Assembly (NCBI GenBank): GCA_020848735.1
Contig: JADLHO010000080.1
Coordinates: 1 to 64,000 of the forward strand
Direction: 5' to 3'
DNA length: 64,000 nucleotides
From: Planctomycetota bacterium
Lineage (GTDB): Bacteria > Planctomycetota > UBA1135 > UBA2386
In this document: piece by piece, positions 21,065 to 40,702 of the stretch
How the letters are laid out: the number at the start of each line of letters is the position of its first letter
Numbering within the stretch: the first letter of the stretch is position 1
The notes under the pieces: model-generated
Seen by the model: the letters and a program-made list of their open reading frames with translations, nothing else
What the model was told of the DNA's origin: nothing
The model's database searches: none
Program-made: the position numbers and the translations under genes

Positions 21065-21745
21065 TCAGGCGCCGCCGACGCGCCGCAGGGAGGCGTTCAT
21101 CCCGGCGCGAAACGGTCCGCCTTCGACGCACCGTTCCTGATCTCCGAGCAACTCACGGAGCGCGCGCACCGAGTTGTGCATGCGCGACTTGACGGTGCCG
21201 ACCGGGATGCCGAGCACGTCGGCGACCTGGCCGTAGGGCAGCTCCTGGTAGACCGCGAGCTCGAAGACGAGCCGATGCGGCTCGGAGAGTCGCTCGAGGC
21301 CATCGCGCAGGCGCCGCTTCTCCTCGGCGTCGGTCGCGCAGTCGCTCGGGTCGGGAGCGCTCGACGAGGGCTCGAAGCCGTCGAGCAGCGCCTGGTCGAG
21401 GGAGTAGAAGCGGGCCTGGGGACGCGAGGCGCGGTAGTGGTCGATCCAGAGGTTCGTCGCGATGCGGAACAGGTAGGTCGAGAGCTTGCCCTCGGGCCGA
21501 TACCCGCGAACCCCCCGCAGGAGCTTCAGGAAGAGGCACTGCGTGAGGTCCTCCGCGCGCGCGAGGTCCCAGCTCAGGCGGTAGAAGAACTGGATCAGGC
21601 GGTCCTGATACTCCGTCACGATCGCGTCGAAGGCCGCGCGATCCCCGTCGCGGAAGCGCGCGAGCAGGTCGGTGCCGAGTTCCGGATCGGCCGGTTTCGG
21701 TCGCGCGGCTTCACGCGGGGTTTCGCGAGCGGGACGGGGTCGCAT
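21065..21745 (-). CDS. ECF-type RNA polymerase sigma factor
   Basis: 226 aa. Region 2 lies at about 27-107: FRDGDRAAFDAIVTEYQDRL, the -10 recognition segment DLTQCLFLKLLRGVRGY and FRIATNLWIDHYR. After a 40-residue acidic linker, region 4 (about 148-195) reads LSEPHRLVFELAVYQELPYGQVADVLGIPVGTVKSRMH, a helix-turn-helix for -35 contact. The first about 20 residues are a basic/Pro tail. It is the first gene of a run with the anti-sigma-like, TolC-like and HEAT lipoprotein genes, so it may autoregulate that run. Confidence 0.92.
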   Translation of the reverse strand: MRPRPARETPREAARPKPADPELGTDLLARFRDGDRAAFDAIVTEYQDRLIQFFYRLSWDLARAEDLTQCLFLKLLRGVRGYRPEGKLSTYLFRIATNLWIDHYRASRPQARFYSLDQALLDGFEPSSSAPDPSDCATDAEEKRRLRDGLERLSEPHRLVFELAVYQELPYGQVADVLGIPVGTVKSRMHNSVRALRELLGDQERCVEGGPFRAGMNASLRRVGGA

Positions 21746-21810: not shown

Positions 21811-22305
21811 TCACGACCAGCCCATGCCGGCGGCCTCGACGAGCCCGTCGAGCCAGTCGAAGCCCTGCTCCGCGCTGAGCTCGGCGCTGCGGCCCTCGCC
21901 CCCGTCCGGGCGCGGACCGAGCCGCACGGTGAGCGTGCGCGGCGGCAGGTACTCCGCGATGCGATCCGCCCACTCGACCACCGCCACGCCGCGGCGTTCG
22001 TCGAGCCAGGCGAGCCCCCCGTCGGCGAGGAAGGCCCTGGTCTTCTCGGCGAGGTAGGCGTCGACGTGGATCATCGGCACGGGTCCCTCGTGCTCGACGA
22101 CGAGGAGATAGGTCGGACTCGCGACCGCCCCCGGGTCCTCGACGCGCAGCCCTCTCGCCACACCGCGGGCCAGCGCCGTCTTCCCGGCCCCCAGTTCGCC
22201 GATCAGCGCGAGCAGTTCGCCGGGCCGCAGCCGCGCGCCGAGCCAGGCCCCGAGCGCCTCCGTCTCGGCGGCGCTCCTCAGGAGGAGTCGGACGCGACGG
22301 GTCAT
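21811..22305 (-). CDS. tsaE: tRNA threonylcarbamoyladenosine biosynthesis ATPase TsaE
   Basis: 164 aa. Walker A GELGAGKT at 36-43, the SPTYLLVVEHEG segment at about 64 and VVEWADRIAEYLPP at about 110 fit the YjeE/TsaE fold. TsaE supports the TsaB-TsaD complex that makes t6A37 on ANN-decoding tRNAs. The ATG overlaps the thiL stop (ATGA), so translation of the two genes is coupled; thiL-tsaE linkage has no obvious pathway meaning. Confidence 0.9.
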   Translation of the reverse strand: MTRRVRLLLRSAAETEALGAWLGARLRPGELLALIGELGAGKTALARGVARGLRVEDPGAVASPTYLLVVEHEGPVPMIHVDAYLAEKTRAFLADGGLAWLDERRGVAVVEWADRIAEYLPPRTLTVRLGPRPDGGEGRSAELSAEQGFDWLDGLVEAAGMGWS

Positions 22306-23255
22306 GGGACGTGTTGCCAGCCCTTCGGCTCGACGCGTTGCCGCCCGTCGGCCGTTTCGAGCCAGAGCCCCGGCTCCGCGACCAGGCGCCCGATCGGTCG
22401 CCGCGCCGCGCGCAGGCACGCGAGCCCCGGCCATCGCAGCCGGGGCGACGCGGCGACGAGCAGTTCGTGGTCCTCCCCGTCGCCGAGCGCGTGCTCGAGG
22501 GCCGTGCGGCCGTCGCGCCGCGCGAGGCGCCGGGCGGAAGCCGCGATGGGGATGGCGGCGGCGTCGAGCACGGCACCCGGCACGTCCGAGGCGCGGAGCA
22601 GGGTCCAGAGGTCGACGAGCAGGCCGTCGCTGACGTCGATCGCCGCGCGCACGCCCGGCAGTCGGGCGAGCGCCTCGCCGGCCGCGACGCGCGGCTCGAA
22701 GCGCAGATGCCGACCGAGGCGCGAGCCGCCGAGCGGACCGGTGACGTGGAGCGTGTCGCCGACCCGTGCGCCCGAGCGCCGCAGCGCGCGGCCCGTCAGG
22801 CGCCCGAGCGCGGTCACGGTGACGACGAGGGGTCCGTCGGCGACCGCGACGTCGCCGCCGACGACCTGCGCGCCGCCGGCGCCGGCCGCCGCCCGGAGGC
22901 CCGCGAAGAGCTGGCGCTGGGCGCGCGGCGTCGTGCCCCTGCGGAACACGATCGACACGAGCAGGAACTCGGGCCGCGCCCCCATCGCCGCGAGGTCCGA
23001 GACGTTGCGGTTGATCACCTTGCGCGCGACGAGTGCCCGCGGCGTGCGCGCATCGAAGTGCACGCCTTCGACGACGGGGTCGCAGGCGAGCACGAGCTCC
23101 CGCGACGCGCAGCGCACGACGGCCGCGTCGTCGCCGATCCCGATCGGCACGCGCGCGGGGTCGCGCGGGAAGAATCCGGCGAGCCACGCGGTGAGCGCGC
23201 GTTCGGGGGGCACGCGCGCGGCGGCTCCACGGCGGGCTCGGGAAGGCGAGGCCAT
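22302..23255 (-). CDS. thiL: Thiamine-monophosphate kinase
   Basis: 317 aa. ThiL phosphorylates thiamine monophosphate to the active diphosphate form with ATP. It shows the PurM/ThiL-type ATP-binding fold: GIGDDAAVV near the start, ACDPVVEGVHFD, VINRNVSDLAAMGARPEFLLVS, GGDVAVADGPLVVTVTALG, the VTGPLGGSRLG loop and AAIDVSDGLLVDLW in the C-terminal half. The ATG at 23255 was chosen because it precedes the family N-terminus. It sits between a small membrane protein gene and tsaE, downstream of a ThiE/TenI-like gene, giving a small thiamine cluster. Confidence 0.9.
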   Translation of the reverse strand: MASPSRARRGAAARVPPERALTAWLAGFFPRDPARVPIGIGDDAAVVRCASRELVLACDPVVEGVHFDARTPRALVARKVINRNVSDLAAMGARPEFLLVSIVFRRGTTPRAQRQLFAGLRAAAGAGGAQVVGGDVAVADGPLVVTVTALGRLTGRALRRSGARVGDTLHVTGPLGGSRLGRHLRFEPRVAAGEALARLPGVRAAIDVSDGLLVDLWTLLRASDVPGAVLDAAAIPIAASARRLARRDGRTALEHALGDGEDHELLVAASPRLRWPGLACLRAARRPIGRLVAEPGLWLETADGRQRVEPKGWQHVP

Positions 23256-23265
23256 CGATCGCCGC

Positions 23266-23646
23266 TCAGCGGAGTCCCGCCGGCGCGGGCTCCGACGAGG
23301 ACACGAAACCGCTGAGCACGAGACCGCGTACGGCGGCGCGCGGCACGCCCTCGGGGAAGGCCTTGCCGCCCGCGTCCGCGAGCCGGACGAGCTCGCCGTC
23401 CGCACGCTCGACGCGCACGAGCGCGAGGCCGTCGGCCGTCGCGAGGAAGACCACCGAACCCGCCGGCAGCTCGGCGGGTCGCTTCGCGACGAGACAGGAG
23501 GTCCCGGCCGGATAGGCGTCGGTGAGGAGCAGCTCGCCGCCAGGCACCGTGAGGAAGCCGTAGTGCAGGTAGAGCAGCAGACCGGACGCGAGGGCCAAGG
23601 GGAGGATCGCGCGGCGCAGCCAGCGGGCCAGCGTGTTGGGAGTCAC
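23266..23646 (-). CDS. Small membrane protein resembling a degenerate S26 signal-peptidase fold
   Basis: 126 aa from a GTG overlapping the thiE-like stop (GTGA). One N-terminal membrane helix (ILPLALASGLLLYLHYGFL) is followed by a compact beta domain: LLLTDAYPAGTSCLVAKRP, LPAGSVVFLATADG and LALVRVERADGELVRLAD. The order of elements recalls the S24/S26 fold (P-x-G-x-x-V-L-V, G-D-V-V-x-F, then K-R-V), but the Ser of the Ser/Lys dyad is not seen (TDAYPAG) and the Lys position is Arg. It is either an inactive signal-peptidase relative or an unrelated protein; family assignment is tentative. The coding status is supported by the tight spacing on both sides. Confidence 0.6.
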   Translation of the reverse strand: MTPNTLARWLRRAILPLALASGLLLYLHYGFLTVPGGELLLTDAYPAGTSCLVAKRPAELPAGSVVFLATADGLALVRVERADGELVRLADAGGKAFPEGVPRAAVRGLVLSGFVSSSEPAPAGLR

Positions 23647-24290
23647 GGCGGGCCGAGGATAGCGTCGACCGCACGCACGAGCGCGGCCGCGCGCGCGGGC
23701 GCGTCCGCATCGTCGATCGCGAGTGCGCCGAGCACGGCGAAGCCGCAGGGCCAGGTGCCGGGCGGCAGCGCGGCGAGCGTCGTCGCCGTGAAGCCGCCGA
23801 GCCAGAGGACCGGGCTCGTCGTCTGCGCCATGAGCGCACGTGCGCCCGCGACGCCGAGCGGAATCGCCGCCGGCTTGCTCGCCGTCGCGAGGACCGGCGC
23901 GAGGACGAGCCCATCCGCGGCGCGCGCCGCGCGCAGCTCCTCCGCATCGTGCGCACTCGCCGAGACCAGCGCACCCGCCGGCAGGCGCGCGCGCAGCGCC
24001 GCGACGCGCGCGGGGCCCGCCTTCAGGTGCACCCCATGGGCGAGTCCGAAGCCCACGAGCCCGGGCCGCTCGTTGACGAACAGGACGCCGCCGAGCGCGT
24101 CGAGGCGCGCCCGCCACGACGCGAGCCGCGGCGCGAGTGCCTCGTCCGGCAGCGAGGGCTCGCGCACCTGCACGGCGCGCACCCCACCCGTGAGCGCGGC
24201 GCCCACGAGACGATCGAGCCGCGCGAGGTCGCCCTGCCCGTCGCTGACGAGCACGAGTCGCAGCGCCCGCCGCAGCCGTGCGTCGTCCAT
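23643..24290 (-). CDS. ThiE/TenI-family protein, substrate residues altered
   Basis: 215 aa TIM-barrel protein of the thiamine-phosphate synthase/TenI group: VLVSDGQGDLARL, AVQVREPSLPDEALA, VLFVNERPGLVGFGLAHGVHLKAG, LVSASAHDAEELRAA, and LWLGGFTATTLAALPP. True ThiE carries Q-x-R-x-K at the second segment; here it is QVREP, with no Lys, and the phosphate-side H-L-G-Q reads HLKA. Synthase activity is therefore uncertain; a TenI-like role in thiamine salvage is equally possible. It lies 3 bp after the helicase-associated gene and is followed by the small membrane protein and thiL. Confidence 0.75.
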   Translation of the reverse strand: MDDARLRRALRLVLVSDGQGDLARLDRLVGAALTGGVRAVQVREPSLPDEALAPRLASWRARLDALGGVLFVNERPGLVGFGLAHGVHLKAGPARVAALRARLPAGALVSASAHDAEELRAARAADGLVLAPVLATASKPAAIPLGVAGARALMAQTTSPVLWLGGFTATTLAALPPGTWPCGFAVLGALAIDDADAPARAAALVRAVDAILGPP

Positions 24291-24293
24291 CGA

Positions 24294-26351
24294 TCAGCGT
24301 CCGTCGTCGTCGTCGGGCTCGCGCGGCTCGTCACGCCGCTCGATGAGGAAGCCCAGATCGCGCGCGAGCTCCTGCAGGCGATCGAGGTCGACCGTGCGGC
24401 GGAGCTTCACGCTGACCGGACAGCTCCGCTCCGCGACGCCCTTGCCGAGCGCCGGTTGCGCGACGAAGCGATCGATCAGCTCCGCGCGGCGCGCGCGCAG
24501 CGTGCGGTGTTCGTCGAGCACGAGCACCCCGGCCTGATCGCCCCAGTCCTCGAGGCTGTAGACGATGTTCTGCGGCAGCGGCACGCGGCTCCGGTCGGTG
24601 AGCTCCTGCACGATCTGCGCGAGGGTCATCCCGTCCTGGAGCGCGCCGTGCACCGAGTCCTTCGTCAGGCGGAAGTGATGCACGTGGTCGCTCTTCTGCC
24701 GCTCGCAGAAGCGATCGAAGGCGTGGACGACCTCGTGCTCGTCGTCGCCGGGGAAGAGCAGGACCTCGAAGTCGGGGTTGACGACCGCCGACGAACGCGC
24801 GCCACCGACGTCGCCCGCGGCCTCGCCGCCGAGGAGCTCCGCGCCGAGGCGCGAGATGCGGATCGCGACGGGACGGCCATCGCGCAGTCCGAGTTCGACG
24901 AGTCCGAGCGGATAGAGGCGACGCTTCACCCAGTCGGCGAGGTGCAGGCAGAGCTGGTGCACGCTCTCCGTCGGCACGTAGTCGCCGCCCTTGAAGCGCG
25001 ACGCGAAGTAGTCCTCGACGTGGAGTTCGTCGAGCTTGCCGAGGTAGCCGTTCCGCGCGAGGAAGGGCACGAACAGCGCCTCGTGCCAGACGTCGGGCTG
25101 CAGGCGTCGCAGCAGGCGCAGCAGGATGCGCCGCAGGCGCACCTGGTGGTAGTGCTCGCCCTGTGCCGCACGCTCCTCGACCGCGAACGCGAGCATCGAT
25201 CGGAGCTTGTCGAGCAGGCCGAGGCCCTCGAAGTCCATCCCCGTCGGCGAGAGCTTCAGGCCGCGCTCACCGCTGCGCTCGACGAAGCGCCGCGAGAGAC
25301 AGAACTGGTAGATGAAGCGCGCCTGGGTCTCGGCCGGCATGTAGCCGCCGGGGATCGCGAGGAACGACTTGGTGATCCGCTTGCTCGAGGCCTTGTAGAG
25401 CAGGCCGTCGACGGTGAACTGCACGCGCGTCGAGCCGACCTCGCGCAGGAAGCGGCCGACGTTGCCCACCAGATCCACGCCGCTCGCCAGCGGCTCGTCG
25501 ACGCGCGGTTCCCCGTGCTCGGCGCTCCAGCCCTGCAGACAGGCGAGCGCGATCTCGTAGAAGACGACGATCGTCTTCTCCACCGACTCGATGCCGAAGC
25601 GATCGAGGCGCAGCGCCGCGACCGTGCCGAGCATCGCATCCTCGAAGCACTTGCGGACGAGGTCGAGGTCGACCTCGATCTCGAGATCGGCCGCGACGCG
25701 CGGCAGCTCCGCCGCCGGCATCACGCCGCCGTACACCGCGAGCGCCCGGTCGAAGACCGCCCGCACCGCCGCCGGCAGGGCCCGCACGCGCGTCCGGATG
25801 GACCCGTCGAGCAGGTAGATCTTGTAGACGCGGCGCGCGTGCTCGAGCGCCTTCTCGCGGCCGTCGGGGTCCTGCTCCGCGCGGCGGTAGTAGCGCTCCT
25901 GCAGGAAGCCCTTCAGCGAGAGCGTCCCCTTCAACTCGGCCTCGAGGCGACGGCGCTGCTCGAGGATGCTCGAGGCGAGTTCCGCCGGCACCGCCCAGGA
26001 CTCCTGACCCTCGACCGGGAAGAGGAAGCCCTCGCGCATCAGCGCGACGAGCGAGGCCTCGACCTCGAAGCGCGAGCGGAACGCCGCCTGCTGCACGTTG
26101 AGCAGGTCCCGGACGTCGCGCCGGTGCTGCTGCTGCGCGAGGAAGCCCTCGAGCAGGTCCGCGAGCTTCTCGGGGAGCTCCTTCACGCGGCGCTGGACGA
26201 GCTCACCGTCGGTCATCCGCGTCAGGAGCAGGCGGACGAGGTGTGCGCGTCGCTCGTTGCCGTCGCAGGCGGCGCCCCAGCGCTCGAGCGTGCTGCGCAG
26301 GTCGCGCTCCGAATGGCCGCGCACGAGCGTGCGAAGCGTCACGTTGCCCAT
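24294..26351 (-). CDS. XPB partner: helicase-associated (Helicase_C_3-type) protein
   Basis: 685 aa from ATG 26351, which overlaps the XPB stop by 13 bases. The N-terminal half is helical with winged-helix-like segments (SLVALMREGFLFPVEGQ, VQFTVDGLLYKASSKRIT). The C-terminal part, about 520-640, has the XPB/Ssl2-like conserved pattern: VVNPDFEVLLFPGDDE, FCERQKSDHVHHFRLTKDSV, MTLAQIVQELTDRSRVPLPQ and IVYSLEDWGDQAGVLVLDEH. Proteins of this family lie next to XPB helicases in actinobacteria (Rv0862c beside Rv0861c in M. tuberculosis, from memory). No nuclease motif is evident. A DNA-binding or XPB-regulating role is inferred from the domain and the gene pairing. Confidence 0.8.
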   Translation of the reverse strand: MGNVTLRTLVRGHSERDLRSTLERWGAACDGNERRAHLVRLLLTRMTDGELVQRRVKELPEKLADLLEGFLAQQQHRRDVRDLLNVQQAAFRSRFEVEASLVALMREGFLFPVEGQESWAVPAELASSILEQRRRLEAELKGTLSLKGFLQERYYRRAEQDPDGREKALEHARRVYKIYLLDGSIRTRVRALPAAVRAVFDRALAVYGGVMPAAELPRVAADLEIEVDLDLVRKCFEDAMLGTVAALRLDRFGIESVEKTIVVFYEIALACLQGWSAEHGEPRVDEPLASGVDLVGNVGRFLREVGSTRVQFTVDGLLYKASSKRITKSFLAIPGGYMPAETQARFIYQFCLSRRFVERSGERGLKLSPTGMDFEGLGLLDKLRSMLAFAVEERAAQGEHYHQVRLRRILLRLLRRLQPDVWHEALFVPFLARNGYLGKLDELHVEDYFASRFKGGDYVPTESVHQLCLHLADWVKRRLYPLGLVELGLRDGRPVAIRISRLGAELLGGEAAGDVGGARSSAVVNPDFEVLLFPGDDEHEVVHAFDRFCERQKSDHVHHFRLTKDSVHGALQDGMTLAQIVQELTDRSRVPLPQNIVYSLEDWGDQAGVLVLDEHRTLRARRAELIDRFVAQPALGKGVAERSCPVSVKLRRTVDLDRLQELARDLGFLIERRDEPREPDDDDGR

Positions 26352-28057
26352 GCTCTCTCCTCGCGACCCGGACCCTCACCGAGGTCCGTGCCGACGATCT
26401 CGTAGGCGTAGCCCTGTTCCGCCAGGAAGAGCTGGCGACGGGCGCTGAAATCCAGGTCGCAGGTGTCGTCGCTCACGAGCGAATAGAAGACGGCGCTGCC
26501 GCCCCCATCGCCCTTCGGGCGCAGCACGCGACCGAGCCGCTGCGCCTCCTCCTGCCGGCTGCCGAAGGTGCCGGAGACCTGCACGAGCACGTTCGCATCG
26601 GGCAGGTCGATCGCGAAATTGCCCACCTTGCTCACGACCAGCGTCTGCAAGGTGCCCTCGCGGAACAACGCATAGAGCCGCTCGCGCTCCGAGGTCGGCG
26701 TGCGCCCCGTGATGAGCTCGAGACCGAAGGTGCGCGCGAGCACGCGGAGCTGATCGAGGTACTGCCCGATGACGAGCACCCGATCGCCGGCGTGGCGCGC
26801 GAGGAGGCGGCCCACGGCATCGAGCTTGCGCTCGTTCTCCGCGGCGAGCTTCTGCCGGCGACGCGGCGCGGCACTGGCATACATCTGCGCGCGCAGCGGC
26901 CCGAGCGGCACACGCACCTCCACGCAGCGCGCCGACGCGAGCCAGCCCTGCTTCTCGAGGTCGCGCCACGGCAGCTCGTAGCGCTTCGGCCCGATCAGGG
27001 AGAAGACGTCGCCCTCGCGACCGTCCTCGCGCACGAGCGTCGCCGTGAGCCCGAGACGACGCCGCGCCTGGATCGCCGCCGTCGCGCGGAACACCGGTGC
27101 CGGCAGCAGATGGACCTCGTCGTAGACGATGAGACCCCAGTCGTTCTGCTCGAGCAGCGCGAAGTGCTGGAAGGGATCCACCTTGCTCTTGCGCCAGGTG
27201 AGGATCTGGTAGGTCGCGATCGTCACCGGGGCGACCTCCTTGCGATCGCCGGTGTACTCGCCGACCTCGTCCTCGCGGAGCGTCGTCTTGTCGAGGAGCT
27301 CCGTGCGCCACTGGCGCACCGCGACCGTGTTCGTGGTGAGGACGAGCGTCCGCGTCTTCGCGAGCGCCAGCACCGCGAGCCCCACGACGGTCTTGCCGGC
27401 ACCGCAGGGCAGCACGACGACCCCCGAACCGCCGCGCGCGGCGCCGTCCTGCCAGAACGCGGCGGCCGCCTCGCGCTGGTACTCCCGCGGCGCGAAGTCC
27501 CGGCCCGTCCGCGCCACACCGCGCAGGTCGATCGCGAGGGGCGCTCCGCCGCGGTAGCCGGCCTCGTCGCGCACGGGATAGCCGAGCTTCACGAGGCAGT
27601 GCTTGAGCACGCCGCGGTGCTCCGCCGGGAACGGCACGCCGTCCGCGTCCGCGCGCTCCGCCGCGAGCAACGGGGCGATCGAGCGCGAGCCGAGGATCGC
27701 CGCGAACTCGTCGGGATCGAGCACCTCCATCCGCAGCTCCGCCTGGTGCCTCGCCGGCACGAAGCGGATGAGCCCGTAGCGGGCATACCAGCGCCGCACC
27801 TCGTCGAGCACCGAGTTCGCGACGGGATAGCGCGAGGCCGAGCGCAGGTACTCGACGATCGCCGCGAGCGGATGGCCGAGCGCCGCGGCGTTCCAGATGC
27901 TGATCGGCGTGATGCGATAGAAGTGGACGTGCTCCGGCGACTTCTCGAGTTCGGCGAACTGCGCGAGGCGCGCGCGCGCCTCCTCGAAGCGCGGGTGCTG
28001 GACCTCCAGGAGCACCGTGCGGTCGGCCTGCACGACGAGCGGATTGGCGGCGTTCAC
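26339..28057 (-). CDS. XPB/Rad25-family DNA repair helicase (SF2)
   Basis: 572 aa from GTG 28057; GTGA overlap with the UvrA stop. The N-terminal 180 residues correspond to the XPB damage-recognition region. The helicase core has Walker A LPCGAGKT (216-223), TTNTVAVRQW, DEVH at 313-316, LTATLVREDG with the XPB-specific RED triplet at 343-345, a thumb-like insertion around 357-410, VIGQYLDQL, VSKVGNFAIDLP and motif VI QRLGRVLRP (507-514). XPB opens DNA at damage or promoters in eukaryotes and acts with nucleases in archaea. Being coupled to UvrA on one side and to a helicase-associated protein on the other suggests it works in excision repair here, but this is inference. Confidence 0.92.
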   Translation of the reverse strand: MNAANPLVVQADRTVLLEVQHPRFEEARARLAQFAELEKSPEHVHFYRITPISIWNAAALGHPLAAIVEYLRSASRYPVANSVLDEVRRWYARYGLIRFVPARHQAELRMEVLDPDEFAAILGSRSIAPLLAAERADADGVPFPAEHRGVLKHCLVKLGYPVRDEAGYRGGAPLAIDLRGVARTGRDFAPREYQREAAAAFWQDGAARGGSGVVVLPCGAGKTVVGLAVLALAKTRTLVLTTNTVAVRQWRTELLDKTTLREDEVGEYTGDRKEVAPVTIATYQILTWRKSKVDPFQHFALLEQNDWGLIVYDEVHLLPAPVFRATAAIQARRRLGLTATLVREDGREGDVFSLIGPKRYELPWRDLEKQGWLASARCVEVRVPLGPLRAQMYASAAPRRRQKLAAENERKLDAVGRLLARHAGDRVLVIGQYLDQLRVLARTFGLELITGRTPTSERERLYALFREGTLQTLVVSKVGNFAIDLPDANVLVQVSGTFGSRQEEAQRLGRVLRPKGDGGGSAVFYSLVSDDTCDLDFSARRQLFLAEQGYAYEIVGTDLGEGPGREERAWAT

Positions 28058-31000
28058 GTCGCGCTCTCCCGGTCCGCCTTCGCGGGGCGACGCTTCGACC
28101 GCGTCCGCGGGGCGACCGACGGAACCGTCGGTCGGTCGCGCCCCATCGCGGCGGCGAGGAATGGACCGGTCACGCTGTGCTGGCTCTCGATCATCGCCTC
28201 GGGGCTGCCTTCGAAGATCACCCGTCCGCCGGCGGGGCCGGCACCGGGACCGAGTTCGATCACGTGGTCCGCGCACTTCACGACGTCGAGGTGATGCTCG
28301 ACCACGATCACGCTGTCGCCGCGGGTCACGAGGCGTTGCAGCACGTCGAGGAGCTTCCGCACGTCGTCGAGGTGCAGGCCCGTCGTCGGCTCGTCGAGCA
28401 CGTAGAGCACGTGCTCCGCGGGGCGGCGTGCGAGCTGCGCCACGAGCTTGATGCGCTGGGCCTCGCCACCCGACAGCGTGTTCCCCGCCTGGCCGAGCCG
28501 CAGGTAGCCGAGGCCGACGTCGGCGAGGAGCTGCAGGGGCCGGCGGATCGACGGGTGATCCGCGAAGAAGGTCAGCGCCTCGTCGACCTCCATCGCCAGC
28601 ACGTCGGCGATCGACTTGCCGTGCAGCTCCACCGTCAGGGTCTCCGCGTCGTAGCGTCGGCCACGGCAGGTCTCGCAGGTCACCCACACGTCCGCGAGGA
28701 AGTGCATCTCGACCTTCTGCTGCCCCTTGCCCTCGCAGGCCGGACAGCGCCCTTCCGCCACGTTGAAGGAGAAGCGCCCCGGCCCGAAGCCCTTGACCCG
28801 GCTCTGCGGCAGCTGCGCGAACAGCTCACGGATCGGCCCGAAGACCCCGGTGTAGGTCGCGGGATTGCTCGCCGGCGTGGTGCCGATCGGCGACTGATCG
28901 ACGACGACCGTCACGAAGGGCGGCGCGTCCTTCGCCACGTAGCGGCCCGTCTCGAGCCGCGGCAGCAGCGTGTCCATGACGAGCGAGGACTTCCCGGAGC
29001 CCGACATGCCCGTCACCGCGACGAACCCGCCGAGCGGGAACTCGATGTCGAAGCCCGTCAGGTTGTGCGTGTCGCAGTTCGCGAGCGCCAGCGCGCCGCG
29101 CGGCTCGCGACGGACACCCGGGACCTCGATGCGCAGCTCCCCGCGGAGATACGCACCCGTCAGGCTCCCGGCCGCGGCCGCGAGCTCGCCCGGCGAACCC
29201 GCCGCGACGACCCGCCCACCGCGATGCCCCGCGCCGGGGCCCATGTCGACGACGTGGTCCGCGCGCCGGATCACCGCCTCGTCGTGCTCCACCGCGATGA
29301 CCGTGTTCCCGAGGTCGCGCAGCTCGAGGAGCGTGTCGACGAGCCGCGCCGTGTCGCTCGGGTGGAGGCCGATCGTCGGTTCGTCGAGGACGTAGAGGAC
29401 GCCGACGAGGCGGTTGCCGAGCTGCGTCGCGAGGCGGATGCGCTGGGCCTCGCCGCCCGACAACGTCGCCGCGGAGCGTTCCAACGTGAGGTAGCCGAGC
29501 CCCACCGAGCGCAGGAAGCCCAGGCGGTTGCGCAGCTCGGCCATCACGTCCTTGCCGATCGCGGTCTCGCTCGCGCGCAGGCGCAGCTTCGCGAGGCGCT
29601 CCGCGGCATCGTCGACCGAGAGGCGCGTGAACGACGGCAAGGACATGCCGCCGACGAGCACCGCCCGCTGCGCCGGCGCGAGGCGCTCCCCGTGACACGC
29701 CGGACAGCTCTCGTCGCGCATGATCGAGCCGAAGCGCTCGGCGGTGTGCGTCGGATCCTGACCGTGGTACCAGGCCTCGATCTGCCGGCAGAGCCCCTTC
29801 CACGTGACCGCCATGTCCCAGCGCTTCGTGCGCTCGGACGAGCTCGACTTGAAGACGACGTCGTAGCGCCGCTCCCCGGTGCCGAAGAGCAGGACCTGCC
29901 GCGCGGCGTCCGGCAGCTCCGCGAAGGGCAGCGCGAGGTCGAAGCCGTGCGCGGCCGCCACCGCGAGCGCCACCGTGTGGTACCAACCGCCGCGCTTGGT
30001 GAGGAAGGTGAACGCCGCGCCCTTGTGCGGGATGGCCCCGCCGAAGAGCGGCTTCTGCGGCAACGCGACCAGCAGCTCGGGAACGCAGACCGCACTGCGA
30101 CCGAGACCGGTGCACGCCGGGCAGGCCCCCGAGTGGTGGTTGAACGAGAACCAGCGCGGATGCGGGTCCTTCGGCGTCACGTGCCCGCACTCGGGACACG
30201 AGCGGTCGGTCGTGTAGATCGCCTGCTCGCCCGCGACGCTGCGCAACACGACGCGACCGTGGGCGAGCGCCTCGGCCTGCTGCACCGCGTCGACGAGGCG
30301 CGTGCGATCGTCGAAGGTCCCACGGTCGACCACGAGGAAGCACTCGTGCACGCGGTCGTCGGCGGCGATCGGGATCGGCTGCTCCAGTCGATGCTCCACC
30401 CCGTCGACGAGCACGCGCACGAAGCCCTGCTCGCGCCAGCCGCGCCGCAGCTCCTCGAGGTACTCCGCGAGCCGCCCGGCATCGGCCTTGTGCTGGGCCG
30501 GGATCGCGACCGGCGCGAGCACGTAGCCGCGGGCGGCGCCGAAGCGCTCGGCGGCGTCGCGCGCGATCGCGCCGGGTGTCCACTGCGTGAGCTCCTGGCC
30601 GTGCGTCGGACAGTGCGGACGGCCGATGCGCGCGAAGAGCCGGCGCAGGTAGTCCTGGATCTCCGTCGCCGTCGCGACCGTCGAGCGCGGGCTGCGCGTC
30701 GAGTTCTTCTGGTCGATCGCGATGGCCGGCCCGAGCCCCTCGAGCTTGTCGACCGGTGCGCGGTCCATGCGCCCCAGGAAGCGGCGCGCGTACGTCGACA
30801 TGCTCTCGACGAAGCGCCGTTGGCCCTCGCTGAACAGCGTGTCGAACGCGAGGCTGGTCTTGCCCGAACCGCTCGGGCCCGTGATCACGGTGAAGCGATC
30901 GAGCGGGATCTCGACGTCCACGCTGCGCAGGTTGTGCTTGCGCGCGCCGCGCACGGTGATCGCGGTCGGTGCCGCGACGCGCGGGGCGGGGCGGCCCTTG

Positions 31001-33858
31001 GCGAGCGGTGCCGCGCGCCGGCCGAGCATCGGGGCGAGCGCGCGCCCCGTCTGCGACTCGCGCACGCGCACGAGCTGCTCCGGCGTGCCGGTCGCGACGA
31101 TCGTGCCGCCCTTCGGTCCGCCCTCGGGACCGAGGTCCACGATCCAATCGGCGCACTTCACCACGTCGAGGTTGTGCTCGATCACGAGCACCGTGTTGCC
31201 GGCCTCGACGAGGCGCGTGAGGCACGCGAGCAGGCGCCGCACGTCGTCGAAGTGCAGTCCGGTCGTCGGCTCGTCGAGGATGTAGATCGTCTTGCCGCTC
31301 GCCGGCCGCTGCAGTTCGGTCGCGAGCTTCACGCGCTGCGCCTCGCCGCCCGAGAGCGTCGTCGAGGGCTGACCGAGCTTCACGTAGCCGAGGCCGACGT
31401 CGCGCAGCGCCTCGAGCGCGCGGGCGAGCTTCGGGAACGCCGCGAAGTGCGCGTGCGCATCGTCGACCGTCAGGTCGAGCACCTGCGCGACGTTCTTGCC
31501 CTTGAACTCGATCTCGAGCGTCTCGTCGTTGAAGCGCCGGCCATCGCAGGCCTCGCACTCGACCTCGACCGGGGCGAGGAACTGCATCTCGAGCGTGCGC
31601 ACGCCCGCGCCTTCGCAGGTCTCGCAACGGCCGCCCGCGACGTTGAACGAGAAGCGTCCCTTGCGGTACTCGCGCAGGTTCGAGTCCGGCAGCGCGGCGA
31701 ACAGCTCGCGCACGTGATCCCAGAGCCCGGTGTACGTCGCGGGGTTGCTGCGCGGCGTCCGTCCGATCGGCGACTGGTCGATCTCGACCAGCTTGTCGAG
31801 CAGGTCGATGCCTTCGACCCGCGCGTGGCGACCGGGTGCCTCGCTCGCGCCGTGCAGCTCGCGCTGCAGCACGCGCTTGAGGATGAGGTTCACGAGCGTC
31901 GACTTGCCGGACCCCGAGACGCCCGTCACGGCGACGAAGCAACCGAGCGGGACCTCGAGGTCCACGCCGCGCAGGTTGTGGTGCGCGGCCCCGAACACGC
32001 GCAACCAGCCGGAGGGACCGGCGGGCCGGCGCGTCGCGGGGATCTCGATCGCGAGCTCCCCGCGCAGGTAGCGCGCCGTCAGCGAACTGCCGTTCGCGAG
32101 CTCGGCCGGTGGGCCCGAGCCCACGATCGTGCCGCCGTGCACGCCGGCACCGGGGCCGACGTCGACGAGCCAGTCGCTGCTGCGGATCGTGTCCTCGTCG
32201 TGTTCGACGACGCAGACCGTGTTGCCGCGGTCGCGCAGCGCGCGCAGCGTGGTGAGCAGACGGCCCTGGTCGCGCGGATGCAGCCCGATGCTCGGCTCGT
32301 CGAGCACGTAGAGGATGCCGCGGAGACCCGCGCCCACCTGCGCCGCGAGCCGGATGCGCTGGCTCTCGCCGCCCGACAGCGTGTTCGCGCGGCGATCGAG
32401 CGTGAGGTAGCCGAGGCCGACCTCGTCGAGGAACGCGAGCCGGAAGGCGATCTCGCGCAGGATCTCCTCGGCGATCTGCGCGCGGTTGCCGTGCAACGCG
32501 AGACCGGCGGCCCAGCGCCGCGCGTCCTCGATCGGCAGCGCGAGGACCTCCGGCAGCGCCTGTCCTTCGAAATGCACCGCGCGCGCCGCCGCGTTCAGGC
32601 GCGTGCCCTGGCACGCGGGACAGGGCTGCGACCGCCGGTAGCGATCGAGGTGCCGCGCCGTCGCCGGACCGTGCACGGACTCGAGGTGCGGGATCAGTCC
32701 GGGGAAGGCGCCGCGCTCCTTCCCGCTCATGCGCAGCTTCTCGCCGCCGCGCTCCCAGCGGAACTCGAAGGTCTGCTTGCCGGTGCCGTGCAGCACCGCC
32801 TTCTTGGCCTTCGCGGGCAGGGCGCGCCAGGGCGTGTCGAGGTCGAAGCCGAGCGCCTCGCCGACCTGGCCGACGTGCTCGAGCCCGAGGCGACCGTAGG
32901 CGAGCTTGCCGTCGGCGGTGAAGCCGTGCAGTGCGAGTTCGCGCAGCGACGCGTCCGCGTCGCGCACGAGCAGCTCGGCGTCGAAGCGATGCACCTCGCC
33001 GAGCCCATCGCAGTCGGGGCAGGCCCCGATCGGGCTGTTGAACGAGAAGAGCCGCGGTTCGAGTTCGGGCACCGCCCCGTGTCCGGCCGGGCAGGCGCGC
33101 GCCGTCGAGAAGGTCTCCGCCCGCGACTCGTCCTCGGCGTCGAGCACGACGACCGAGCCCTCGCCGAGCTTCACCGCCTGTTCGAGCGACTCGGCGAGGC
33201 GCGAACGGTCCTCCGCGGCGACGCGCACGCGATCGACGACGAGCTCGATCGAGTGGTAGCGGTAGCGCTCGAGCGCGATGTCCTCGTCGAGCCGGCGCAC
33301 GACGCCGTCGATGCGCGCCCGCACGAAGCCGCGCGCGCGCCAGCCCGCGAGTTCCTGCCGGTACTCCCCCTTGCGCTCGCGCACCACCGGCGCGAGCACG
33401 AGCACGCGCCGGCCGTCGCGCGTCGCGAGCAGGGTCTCGACGATCCGGTCGACCGACCAGGCCTCGACGCGCGCCCCGCACTCGGGACAGCTCGGCACGC
33501 CGAGCCGTGACCAGAGCAGGCGGAGGAAGTCGGCGAGCTCGGTGAGGGTGCCGACCGTCGAGCGCGGGGAATGGCCGACCGACTTCTGGTCGATCGAGAC
33601 CGTCGGGGAGAGCCCGTCGACGAAGTCGACGCGCGGCTTCTCCATCCGCCCGAGGAACTGCCGCGCGTAGCTCGAGAGGCTCTCGAGGAAGCGCCGCTGC
33701 CCCTCCTGATAGATCGTGTTGTAGGCGAGGCTCGACTTCCCCGAGCCCGAGACGCCGGTGAAGGTCACGAGGGCGTCGCGCGGGAACTCGAGGTCGACGT
33801 TCCTCAGGTTGTGCTCGCGCGCTCCGCGGACGGTGACGTGACGCTGCGCCTCGGTCAT
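28054..33858 (-). CDS. uvrA: Tandem double UvrA (two complete UvrA units in one chain)
   Basis: 1934 aa, about twice the usual 940. Four Walker A motifs are seen: [10 protein letters not shown] near 35, [10 protein letters not shown] near 649, [10 protein letters not shown] near 997 and [10 protein letters not shown] near 1622. Four signatures follow as [11 protein letters not shown] (about 494), [11 protein letters not shown] (about 835), [11 protein letters not shown] (about 1466) and [11 protein letters not shown] (about 1794). Each half has UvrB-contact and zinc-finger regions. In the first half the ABC-I finger is altered: ACPAGHG replaces C-P-x-C. The junction is near residue 964. The unit binds distorted DNA and loads UvrB. 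A fused tandem UvrA is known in chlamydiae. The ATG at 33858 gives the standard N-terminus. The stop overlaps XPB. Confidence 0.95.
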
Positions 33859-33937: not shown

Positions 33938-34795
33938 TCACGGTGCGCCGCCGACCGCCGCCAGCAGGTCGGTGTGGAGCAGGCCGTTGCTCGCGAGCAT
34001 CTGACCGCCGAAGAGCCAATCGCCACCGCCCGCGAGGTCGCTGACCCGACCCTTGGCCTCCTGCACGATCAGCGCGCCGGCCGCGACGTCGTAGGGCTGG
34101 AGGTAGAGCTCCCAGTAGGCGTCGACCGTGCCGTCGGCCACGAGGCAGAGATCGATCTCGGCCGAGCCCTGCCGCCGCAGGTCCCGGCAGAGGGGCAGCA
34201 CGCGACGGATGCGCTCGACGTTGTCGTCCCGACCGGGCTCGTTGCGGTTGTAGCTGAAGCCCGTGCTGAGCAGCGCATCCGCGAGTTCACGCGTCGCGCT
34301 GACCGCGATGCGCACGCCGTCGCGGAAGGCGCCGCGCCCGCGCTGCGCGGTCCAGACCTGCCCCAGCCGCGGGGCGTGCACGACCGCCACGAGCGGTTCG
34401 CCCGCCCGGTAGAGCGCGACCGCGACGCAGTACGCCGGCAGCCCGTGGACGTAATTGGTGGTGCCGTCGAGCGGGTCGACGATCCACAGGTCGCGAGCGG
34501 TCTTGCTGATCGCGCCGGCCGGGGTGAGCGCACCCTCCTCCGCGAGCACCGCGTCGTGCGGGCGTGCGGCGAGGAGCTCGGAGACCACCGCGTGCTCGGC
34601 GGCGCGGTCCGCGGCCGTGACGAGTTCGCGGCGCCGGCCCTTGCTCTCGTGGCGGATCGCACCGTGGGCCGGGGTGTGCGCGAGCAGCAGCTCGGCGCCC
34701 CGCCGCGCGGCGCGACACGCGAGCGCGAGGAGCTCGTCGAGTTCGCCTTCGCCGAGTTCGCCCTCGCCGCAACCGCCCTCGCCGACCGCGCTCAC
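33938..34795 (-). CDS. Inositol-monophosphatase-family phosphatase
   Basis: 285 aa from GTG 34795, which overlaps the dacB stop (GTGA). The family core is intact: LVTAADRAAEHAVV (58-71), LAEEGAL with the metal-binding Glu, WIVDPLDGTTNYVHG (104-118) with the DPLDGT metal site, and a C-terminal metal Asp in PYDVAAGALIVQEAKG. Substrates in the family include inositol monophosphate, fructose bisphosphate, histidinol phosphate and PAP; the local sequence does not decide. The first about 20 residues repeat GEGEL and have no counterpart in the family, so a later start is possible although none with a better context was found. Confidence 0.86.
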   Translation of the reverse strand: MSAVGEGGCGEGELGEGELDELLALACRAARRGAELLLAHTPAHGAIRHESKGRRRELVTAADRAAEHAVVSELLAARPHDAVLAEEGALTPAGAISKTARDLWIVDPLDGTTNYVHGLPAYCVAVALYRAGEPLVAVVHAPRLGQVWTAQRGRGAFRDGVRIAVSATRELADALLSTGFSYNRNEPGRDDNVERIRRVLPLCRDLRRQGSAEIDLCLVADGTVDAYWELYLQPYDVAAGALIVQEAKGRVSDLAGGGDWLFGGQMLASNGLLHTDLLAAVGGAP

Positions 34796-36514: not shown

Positions 36515-36552
36515 TCACGGTCAGTAGCCAGCTTCACGGTCAGGAGTCAGGT
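36515..36552 (+). repeat. 19-bp tandem direct repeat upstream of nrdJ
   Basis: Two head-to-tail 19-bp units, 36515-36533 and 36534-36552, match at 16 of 19 positions and share TCACGGTCAG at their left end. The second contains GGTCAGGAGTC, partly like a B12 box (AGYCMGGAGACC). The pair could be two binding sites for a regulator, part of a folded leader, or a chance duplication. Confidence 0.6.
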
Positions 36553-36557
36553 GGCAC

Positions 36558-36577
36558 GGCCCCCGTCCGCGGGGGCC
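36558..36577 (+). other. Perfect hairpin in nrdJ leader
   Basis: GGCCCCCG pairs with CGGGGGCC over 8 bp around a TCCG loop. No T tract follows, so it is more likely a folded leader element than an intrinsic terminator. Confidence 0.55.
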
Positions 36578-36682
36578 ACGCCGGGTGGGCTCGCGACGCC
36601 TTCGCTCTCGGCGCCGCAGCCGCATCGCCCGTGCGCGCCGAGTTCTGCGGTCTGTCGAGCCAAGTCTCACGCCGAGTGTCGA

Positions 36683-36704
36683 GCCGACCCGGGCACGGGT
36701 CGGC
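36683..36704 (+). other. Second perfect hairpin in nrdJ leader
   Basis: GCCGACCCG pairs with CGGGTCGGC over 9 bp around a GGCA loop, about 200 bp before the nrdJ start. A DNA palindrome for a protein is an alternative reading. Confidence 0.55.
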
Positions 36705-36910
36705 GGACCACGCGGGATCGCACGGCATCGCGCTGTCGTCGCGACGCCGCGGCGCGGTCCCTCGGCGCGACGAGGCGGGACCGCAGCGGCGGCCGGACCC
36801 GACGCCGGGCGTCGAGCTGGTGCAAGCGGTGTCGGTCGGGGTCGGTGGCATCACGGCGTGGAAGCTCCGCTCCGCGACGTGGTGAACGACAGGCGTTCCG
36901 GAGGCAGACG

Positions 36911-40702
<3,792 letters not shown>

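What the first reader, a model, noticed from the sequence alone, without database searches (positions are those of the whole stretch)
24294..33858. Tandem UvrA, XPB helicase and helicase-associated protein in one translationally coupled operon
The stop of a double-length UvrA overlaps the start of an XPB-type helicase by GTGA, and the XPB stop overlaps the start of a Helicase_C_3-type partner by 13 bases. Bacterial damage recognition (UvrA) and an archaeo-eukaryotic type repair motor are thus expressed together. XPB beside the Helicase_C_3 family is known in actinobacteria, but I know of no description of the trio with a tandem UvrA. A composite excision-repair or transcription-coupled repair machine is a plausible reading.
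Basis: partly seen in the sequence, partly recalled or inferred. Interest (0 to 1): 0.8.

Follow-up and report, generated by a model that had tools for sequence, protein, structure and literature searches.

The report
UvrA, XPB and p52-like repair operon
A group of planctomycete bacteria keeps the gene for its DNA-damage sensor UvrA in one operon with the XPB motor and with a protein predicted to fold like p52, the subunit that holds XPB inside the human repair and transcription complex TFIIH, which gives bacterial XPB a testable role in excision repair.

Summary
In detail: a 1934-aa tandem UvrA overlaps xpb by GTGA, and xpb overlaps the third gene by 13 nt. The genome is a Planctomycetota MAG, and this is the only UvrA found in its assembly.

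The trio is conserved: 77 of 89 XPB loci read from the same order, 12 of 40 from other planctomycete families, and 10 of 80 named loci, all ten planctomycete by title. The uvrA stop lies within 35 nt of the XPB homology start in 98 of 101 linked loci.

The third protein is the surprise. Its AlphaFold model (pLDDT 84.5) has p52/Tfb2 of TFIIH as its 16 best PDB hits, then the XPB N-terminal domain. In TFIIH these two homologous domains pair to hold XPB. A Paenibacillus XPB neighbour gives the same result.

In family f8 no canonical UvrA was found (0 of 26 genomes), though UvrB and UvrC are there (20 of 20 tested); a degenerate xpb-linked tandem UvrA is the only one found.

Best reading: excision repair in which UvrA finds damage and a minimal TFIIH-like XPB/p52 pair opens DNA for UvrB. 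Contact with UvrA is inferred. Against it: suhB and thiE are syntenic too, and some genomes keep tandem UvrA without XPB and partner.

The parts
28054..33858 (-). tandem UvrA (1934 aa): two complete UvrA units; four Walker A, LSGGE, Walker B and CxxCxGxG motifs; UvrB-interaction and DNA-binding insertion domains in both halves
26339..28057 (-). XPB helicase (572 aa) with eukaryote-type N-terminal domain, Walker A, DEVH box, RED motif; start overlaps the uvrA stop by GTGA
24294..26351 (-). p52/Tfb2-like XPB partner (685 aa): region resembling the p52 middle domain, then a clutch domain (about aa 517-609, PF13625); overlaps xpb by 13 nt
33938..34741 (-). suhB-type inositol monophosphatase, upstream syntenic neighbour (start approximate, from the Pfam match)
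23643..24290 (-). thiE-type thiamine phosphate synthase, next gene downstream of the partner
22302..23405 (-). AIRS-domain gene (thiL-like by recall), further syntenic neighbour; start uncertain

Best explanation
The three genes form a conserved planctomycete nucleotide-excision-repair operon. The tandem UvrA is a covalent pseudo-dimer that finds distorted DNA and loads UvrB. XPB is a double-stranded-DNA translocase held by a p52-like protein, through a clutch-to-XPB-N-terminal-domain pairing as in TFIIH. UvrA brings this XPB/p52-like pair to the lesion, where XPB turns and opens the duplex so that UvrB can verify damage and UvrC can cut. Shown here: gene order, spacing, families, the p52-like predicted fold, and the state of UvrA, UvrB and UvrC across relatives. 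Inferred: that the XPB/p52-like pair forms and binds UvrA, and the order of the steps.
For: Trio in 77 of 89 order loci and 12 of 40 phylum loci. uvrA stop to XPB homology start at most 35 nt in 98 of 101 linked loci, 8 nt in 22 of 24 of f1. Partner model pLDDT 84.5: Foldseek ranks 1-16 are p52/Tfb2 chains (best E 4.1e-8), ranks 17-39 p52 or XPB chains, first unrelated row E 0.17. VIA: p52 Z 14.9 (243 residues, rmsd 8.0); crystal N-terminal half of p52, without the clutch (6tru_D), Z 10.3 (155 residues, rmsd 3.8). Tfb2 Pfam over 154 whole genomes: 21 of 33 rows at E up to 1 fall on the partner, 7 on XPB, 5 elsewhere. Paenibacillus partner: Foldseek ranks 1-18 p52, best E 1.3e-9. [quoted passage not shown] Linked UvrA without insertion domain but with UvrB-interaction domain in f4, f5, f24. 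f8: 0 of 26 genomes with a UvrA over the cut-off, UvrB and UvrC in 20 of 20 tested.
Against: suhB, thiE and an AIRS gene are syntenic too, so gene order alone can be inertia. In 3 of 4 f35 and 2 of 3 f63 loci suhB lies directly before xpb, without uvrA. G138 and G139 have a tandem UvrA but no XPB over the cut-off and no partner match; in G127 XPB is incomplete and the partner only a weak partial match: UvrA does not need them. Pairs of xpb with such a partner occur in other phyla without uvrA. p52 alignments have low TM-scores (query-normalised 0.20 or less) and mostly high rmsd. The p52 N-terminal domain is not convincingly matched. No Tfb2 match passes the Pfam cut-off; 124 of 154 genomes gave no row at all, and 6 of 14 control genomes gave sub-threshold rows. 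In PMC7708078 (passages) XPB with p52, p34, p8 and XPA showed no measurable translocase activity outside full core TFIIH. The f8 linked UvrA has no LSGGE and half the Walker A motifs.
Confidence: 0.57

Rival explanations
1. Conserved synteny only. XPB with its p52-like partner is one functional pair, and uvrA sits upstream inside an old suhB-uvrA-xpb-p52-thiE-AIRS block for expression or by inheritance, without physical contact.
For: suhB, thiE and the AIRS gene recur in the block; most f35 and f63 loci have suhB-xpb-p52 without uvrA; tandem UvrA persists in G138 and G139 where XPB and partner were not found; xpb-partner neighbours lack uvrA in other phyla.
Against: Near-constant short spacing; linked UvrA specialised by loss of its insertion domain while a separate canonical UvrA is present in f4, f6 and f24; in f8 only the linked UvrA was found with UvrB and UvrC.
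Confidence: 0.28
2. The XPB/p52-like pair acts on transcription (promoter opening or stalled RNA polymerase), and uvrA is coupled for transcription-coupled repair.
For: In TFIIH the XPB-p52 pair serves both transcription and repair (passages). A sigma-70-family gene lies at window 21065-21745, below the thiE and AIRS genes; its conservation was not tested.
Against: Mfd present in 35 of 35 genomes tested; the neighbours tested for synteny (suhB, thiE, AIRS gene) are not transcription genes.
Confidence: 0.1
3. A defence or conflict system built on UvrA-like ABC and SF2 motors.
For: PADLOC models match: mad3 (568 bits) and mad8 (222 bits) to the UvrA ABC domains, PbeA (66 bits) to the helicase; none to the partner.
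Against: These look like general ATPase similarities to full UvrA and XPB equivalogs; the trio is conserved across most families of an order, and the linked UvrA is the only UvrA found in the window genome.
Confidence: 0.03

Closest known systems
TFIIH XPB-p52(-p8) subcomplex of eukaryotes
   Same: XPB with N-terminal domain; a partner with a p52-like middle region followed by a clutch homologous to the XPB N-terminal domain (Greber 2019, passages)
   Different: Bacterial, in an operon with UvrA; p8 and the other TFIIH subunits were not searched for; partner larger (685 aa) and below the Tfb2 Pfam cut-off
Bacterial UvrABC excision repair
   Same: UvrA with all four ATP sites and both accessory domains; UvrB and UvrC elsewhere in the genome
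   Different: UvrA is a tandem fusion whose stop overlaps the start of xpb
Tandem UvrA model NF001885/PRK00635 (chlamydial by recall)
   Same: UvrA model of similar length (1809 positions)
   Different: 1297.8 bits against a cut-off of 3054
Archaeal XPB-Bax1
   Same: XPB paired with a dedicated partner
   Different: Bax1 is a nuclease that contacts the ThM and HD2 regions of XPB (review passages); this partner has no nuclease domain match and is p52-like
Mycobacterial XPB (Balasingham 2012)
   Same: Bacterial XPB with N-terminal domain
   Different: Studied alone; the authors state that homologs of other TFIIH subunits had not been identified in bacteria (passages)

Membership tests
bacterial XPB (NF045503) | score over the curated cut-off | tested here: met
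   812 vs 610 bits
bacterial XPB (NF045503) | Walker A, DEVH box, RED motif, XPB N-terminal domain | tested here: met
   invariant G219, G221-T223 (A220 nearly), D313-H316, R343-D345 in 17 rows; PF13625 at aa 7-134
UvrA (TIGR00630) | full-length match over the cut-off in each half, with UvrB-interaction and DNA-binding domains | tested here: met
   PF17760 and PF17755 two stretches each; motifs
NF001885 tandem UvrA | score over the curated cut-off | tested here: not met
   1297.8 vs 3054 bits
p52/Tfb2 (by fold) | clutch domain of XPB-NTD fold | tested here: met
   PF13625; XPB chains Z 15.8 over model 518-671, 150 residues, rmsd 7.8; predicted model
p52/Tfb2 (by fold) | p52 middle domain 1 before the clutch, in that order | tested here: met
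   p52 top Foldseek hits over about 520 columns; 8ebu_D model 271-609 to p52 128-400; 6tru_D without clutch Z 10.3, rmsd 3.8, chain 123-318; predicted model
p52/Tfb2 (by fold) | p52 N-terminal domain | tested here: inconclusive
   covered only in rows with rmsd near 17 A and inconsistent ranges, such as 9pd3_D and 8ebt_D
p52/Tfb2 (by fold) | C-terminal p8-binding domain | tested here: inconclusive
   human p52 alignments of the window model stop at residue 399-400; those of the Paenibacillus model reach 458-462
Pfam PF03849 Tfb2 | gathering score | tested here: not met
   0 of 154 genomes over the cut-off; 3 of 13 homologues match weakly, best E 0.013
p52/Tfb2 (by function) | binds XPB and stimulates its ATPase | not testable with these tools
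   needs biochemistry
TFIIH complex | p62, p44, p34, p8 and XPD subunits | not tested
   not searched
XPB-Bax1 | partner is a Bax1-type nuclease | tested here: not met
   only PF13625 matched in the window partner

The most novel reading that the evidence does not exclude
Bacteria carry a minimal TFIIH-like core, XPB anchored by a p52 homologue, in several phyla (Planctomycetota and Firmicutes by model). The eukaryotic XPB-p52 clutch pairing therefore predates TFIIH or was exchanged between domains. In Planctomycetota this core was wired into bacterial excision repair by an operon with a tandem UvrA, and in family f8 the specialised UvrA of that operon replaced canonical UvrA.
Probability: 0.5. 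Interest if true: 0.9.

Novelty: new variant of a known kind. Interest (0 to 1): 0.8.

Why it matters
What bacterial XPB does is open: a 2012 study says homologs of other TFIIH subunits had not been identified in bacteria (passages), and a 2026 review still calls the function of XPB in archaea and bacteria elusive (passages). A p52-like partner gives bacterial XPB a testable role as an anchored translocase, and the operon with UvrA names the pathway to test. It would also give a two- or three-protein system for studying the XPB-p52 clutch, whose XPB side carries human disease mutations (passages), and it bears on the origin of TFIIH.

Tried and rejected
Transcription-coupled repair by replacement of Mfd: not supported, Mfd present in 35 of 35. 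Defence system: see rivals. Partner as helicase or nuclease: no such domain. Sequence search of the partner alone against PDB gave only one row, an unrelated protein at E 1.7; its profile gave XPB N-terminal domains (best E 4.7e-4) and six Tfb2/p52 sequences at E 0.05-0.43, among which unrelated rows such as vimentin (0.064) also lie. Tandem UvrA as an XPB-specific feature: rejected, frames of 2335-2392 aa with UvrA matches occur in G200, G220, G325, G377 and G424, which have no XPB match at E 1e-100. A first tree of UvrA halves split the tandems wrongly and is not used; one search replaces it, with the degenerate linked UvrAs of f4, f5 and f24 left out as long branches and f8 not included. 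Paper searches that turned up no bacterial p52 and no uvrA-xpb operon (listings; passages of five papers read); the library lacks most subscription journals and preprints. No tRNA or Rfam match in the window.

Limits of the counts: in the order I fetched 88 XPB places from 87 of 154 genomes (136 over the cut-off), picked by hand, partly for contig length; the 89th locus is the window. XPB matches at E 0.001 are not specific (14 of 14 controls ring). In the UvrA search of the order only five candidates per genome were scored. Forty phylum loci of 60 planned were held. Chain identity of p52 and XPB in the fold tables comes for 8ebt_D, 7o4i_2, 8ebt_A and 6nmi_A and from the titles of 6trs and 6tru; the other chains were judged by length and by recall.

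Full report
OBSERVATION. On the minus strand the window holds a 1934-aa UvrA (33858-28054), XPB (28057-26339, 572 aa) and a 685-aa partner (26351-24294). The overlaps are as reported: GTGA and 13 nt. UvrA has two full units, each over the TIGR00630 cut-off of 729.8 bits; the next best match in the assembly (6.4 Mb, 277 contigs, 89.3% complete) has 37.4 bits. Four Walker A, LSGGE, Walker B and CxxCxGxG motifs are present, and the UvrB-interaction and DNA-binding domains are matched in two stretches each. XPB is over the NF045503 cut-off and matches human and yeast TFIIH XPB better than archaeal XPB.

ORGANISM. The closest named XPB record is a Planctomycetota MAG (L138, 75% identity).

CONSERVATION. 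In the same order XPB is over the cut-off in 136 of 154 genomes, and the partner matches in 140 of 154 (E 1e-10). Among 89 XPB loci read (88 fetched plus the window), uvrA lies within 300 nt upstream on the same strand in 78, and the full trio is in 77. Exceptions include three f2 XPB places with another type of neighbour, most of f3 (2 of 8 linked), and contig ends. Of 40 loci from other planctomycete families 13 have linked uvrA and 12 the trio (f11, f15, f24, f27, f43, f47). Of the 80 named loci 10 have it: eight titled Planctomycetota and two titled Singulisphaera, a planctomycete genus by recall. The uvrA stop to XPB homology start is at most 35 nt in 98 of 101 linked loci (some named loci repeat G loci). 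A tree of UvrA halves (51 rows) puts 21 of 22 N halves together (support 90/99) and 22 of 23 C halves together (100/100); the tandem of L250 (f55) is separate. Tandems not linked to xpb (L135, L136, L240) fall in the same two groups. So the main tandem is old and was mostly inherited as one gene.

LINKED UvrA SPECIALISES. In f4, f5 and f24 the linked tandem UvrA shows no DNA-binding insertion domain in either half but keeps the UvrB-interaction domain; in f6 one half lacks the insertion (one protein each by Pfam, f4 also by profile in a second). Separate stand-alone UvrAs are seen in f4 and f6 and f24; for f5 five matches were counted but not placed. In f8 the linked frame is mostly 1317-1434 aa, has no LSGGE in 17 of 17, and keeps two Walker A motifs in 16 of 17 and one in the remaining, shorter frame. 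suhB precedes it in 17 of 17 loci, so it is the syntenic counterpart. In f8 none of 26 genomes has a UvrA match better than E 7.1e-72 (genomes 73-90% complete, five candidates scored in each), while UvrB and UvrC match in 20 of 20 f8 genomes tested (35 of 35 overall, one of the 35 below the cut-off in each search: G101 for UvrB, in two pieces, and G083 of f3 for UvrC, a short fragment).

THE PARTNER. Pfam sees only Helicase_C_3 at aa 524-637. Its AlphaFold2 model (13 sequences, mean pLDDT 84.5, pTM 0.71) was compared with PDB. Foldseek ranks 1-16 are p52/Tfb2 chains of TFIIH (best E 4.1e-8, 521 columns); ranks 17-39 are p52 or XPB chains, and the first unrelated row has E 0.17. TM-scores are low and rmsd high. 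VIA-align gives XPB Z 15.8 (150 residues, rmsd 7.8), p52 Z 14.9 (243 residues, rmsd 8.0), and the N-terminal crystal half of p52, without the clutch (6tru_D, chain 123-318), Z 10.3 (155 residues, rmsd 3.8); unrelated rows reach Z 9.2 at most. High overall rmsd fits a flexible chain: PMC7708078 (passages) calls p52 flexible, with domain orientations that differ between crystal and cryo-EM, and says its NTD, MD1 and MD2 showed no significant structural homology to known domains. By sequence, the partner profile gives XPB at best E 4.7e-4 and six p52/Tfb2 sequences at E 0.05-0.43 in one segment, with unrelated proteins in the same E range. Tfb2 matches 3 of 13 homologues weakly, best E 0.013; eight other families match one member each at E 0.02-0.19. 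Over 154 whole genomes the Tfb2 model gives 33 rows at E up to 1 in 30 genomes: by comparison on the partner, 7 on XPB and 5 elsewhere; none is over the cut-off, the best is E 1.8e-4, and 6 of 14 control genomes also gave sub-threshold rows. The sequence signals on the partner lie in the clutch region, which XPB shares, so the p52 assignment beyond the clutch rests on predicted structure.

OTHER BACTERIA. Genes with this domain abut or overlap the xpb end in Paenibacillus (L153, L209), Latescibacterota (L145), Hydrogenedentota (L180) and Spirochaetales (L174) records. The Paenibacillus turpanensis partner (model pLDDT 65.6; its alignment has five planctomycete rows of 11) gives p52 in ranks 1-18, best E 1.3e-9; unrelated rows start at rank 35, E 1.6e-3, with WYL-type regulators. 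VIA rows reach human p52 residue 458-462, with rmsd 13-18.

MECHANISM. [quoted passage not shown] The same two domains are encoded here in overlapping genes. With UvrA first, the simplest reading is lesion finding by UvrA, duplex opening by XPB held by the p52-like protein, then UvrB and UvrC. Contact with UvrA is inferred.

AGAINST. The block also holds suhB, thiE and an AIRS gene. In 3 of 4 f35 and 2 of 3 f63 loci suhB comes directly before xpb, without uvrA. G138 and G139 have tandem UvrA without XPB over the cut-off or a partner match, and G127 has an incomplete XPB and a weak partial partner. XPB with p52, p34, p8 and XPA had no measurable translocase activity in PMC7708078 (passages), so a minimal pair may need more. 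Mfd is present in 35 of 35.

NOVELTY. Bacterial XPB, tandem UvrA models and excision repair are known. My searches (Tried and rejected) found no paper on a bacterial p52 or on this operon. I rate it a new variant of a known kind.

Noticed in passing
L046-L051, L057, L060, L061, L064-L066, L083, L086, L091, L093, L128 (family f8 loci): A planctomycete family, many with small genomes, shows UvrB and UvrC but no canonical UvrA was found; only a degenerate tandem UvrA beside xpb.
   Followed up: partly
L153:11680-13554: The Paenibacillus turpanensis gene overlapping the xpb end is p52-like by model and ends in a domain resembling Sm/Hfq and WYL folds (Z about 9).
   Followed up: partly
L169, L184, L207: Thorarchaeota records hold XPB and, 1.7-3.6 kb downstream, a Helicase_C_3 protein; the one scanned (L169) has a weak Tfb2 match (E 0.055).
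   Followed up: no
L044, L045, L124: XPB places in f2 without uvrA and with a different, more distant Helicase_C_3 neighbour; G035 and G059 also have another XPB place.
   Followed up: no
L129 (G127), L136 (G139), L137 (G138): Tandem UvrA kept while XPB and partner are incomplete (G127) or not found (G138, G139), as if XPB and partner are lost together.
   Followed up: partly
window 21065-21745: Sigma-70-family gene (regions 2 and 4) below the thiE and AIRS genes on the same strand; conservation not tested.
   Followed up: no
window 36551-40702: Class II (B12-dependent) ribonucleotide reductase, 1383 aa, plus strand.
   Followed up: no
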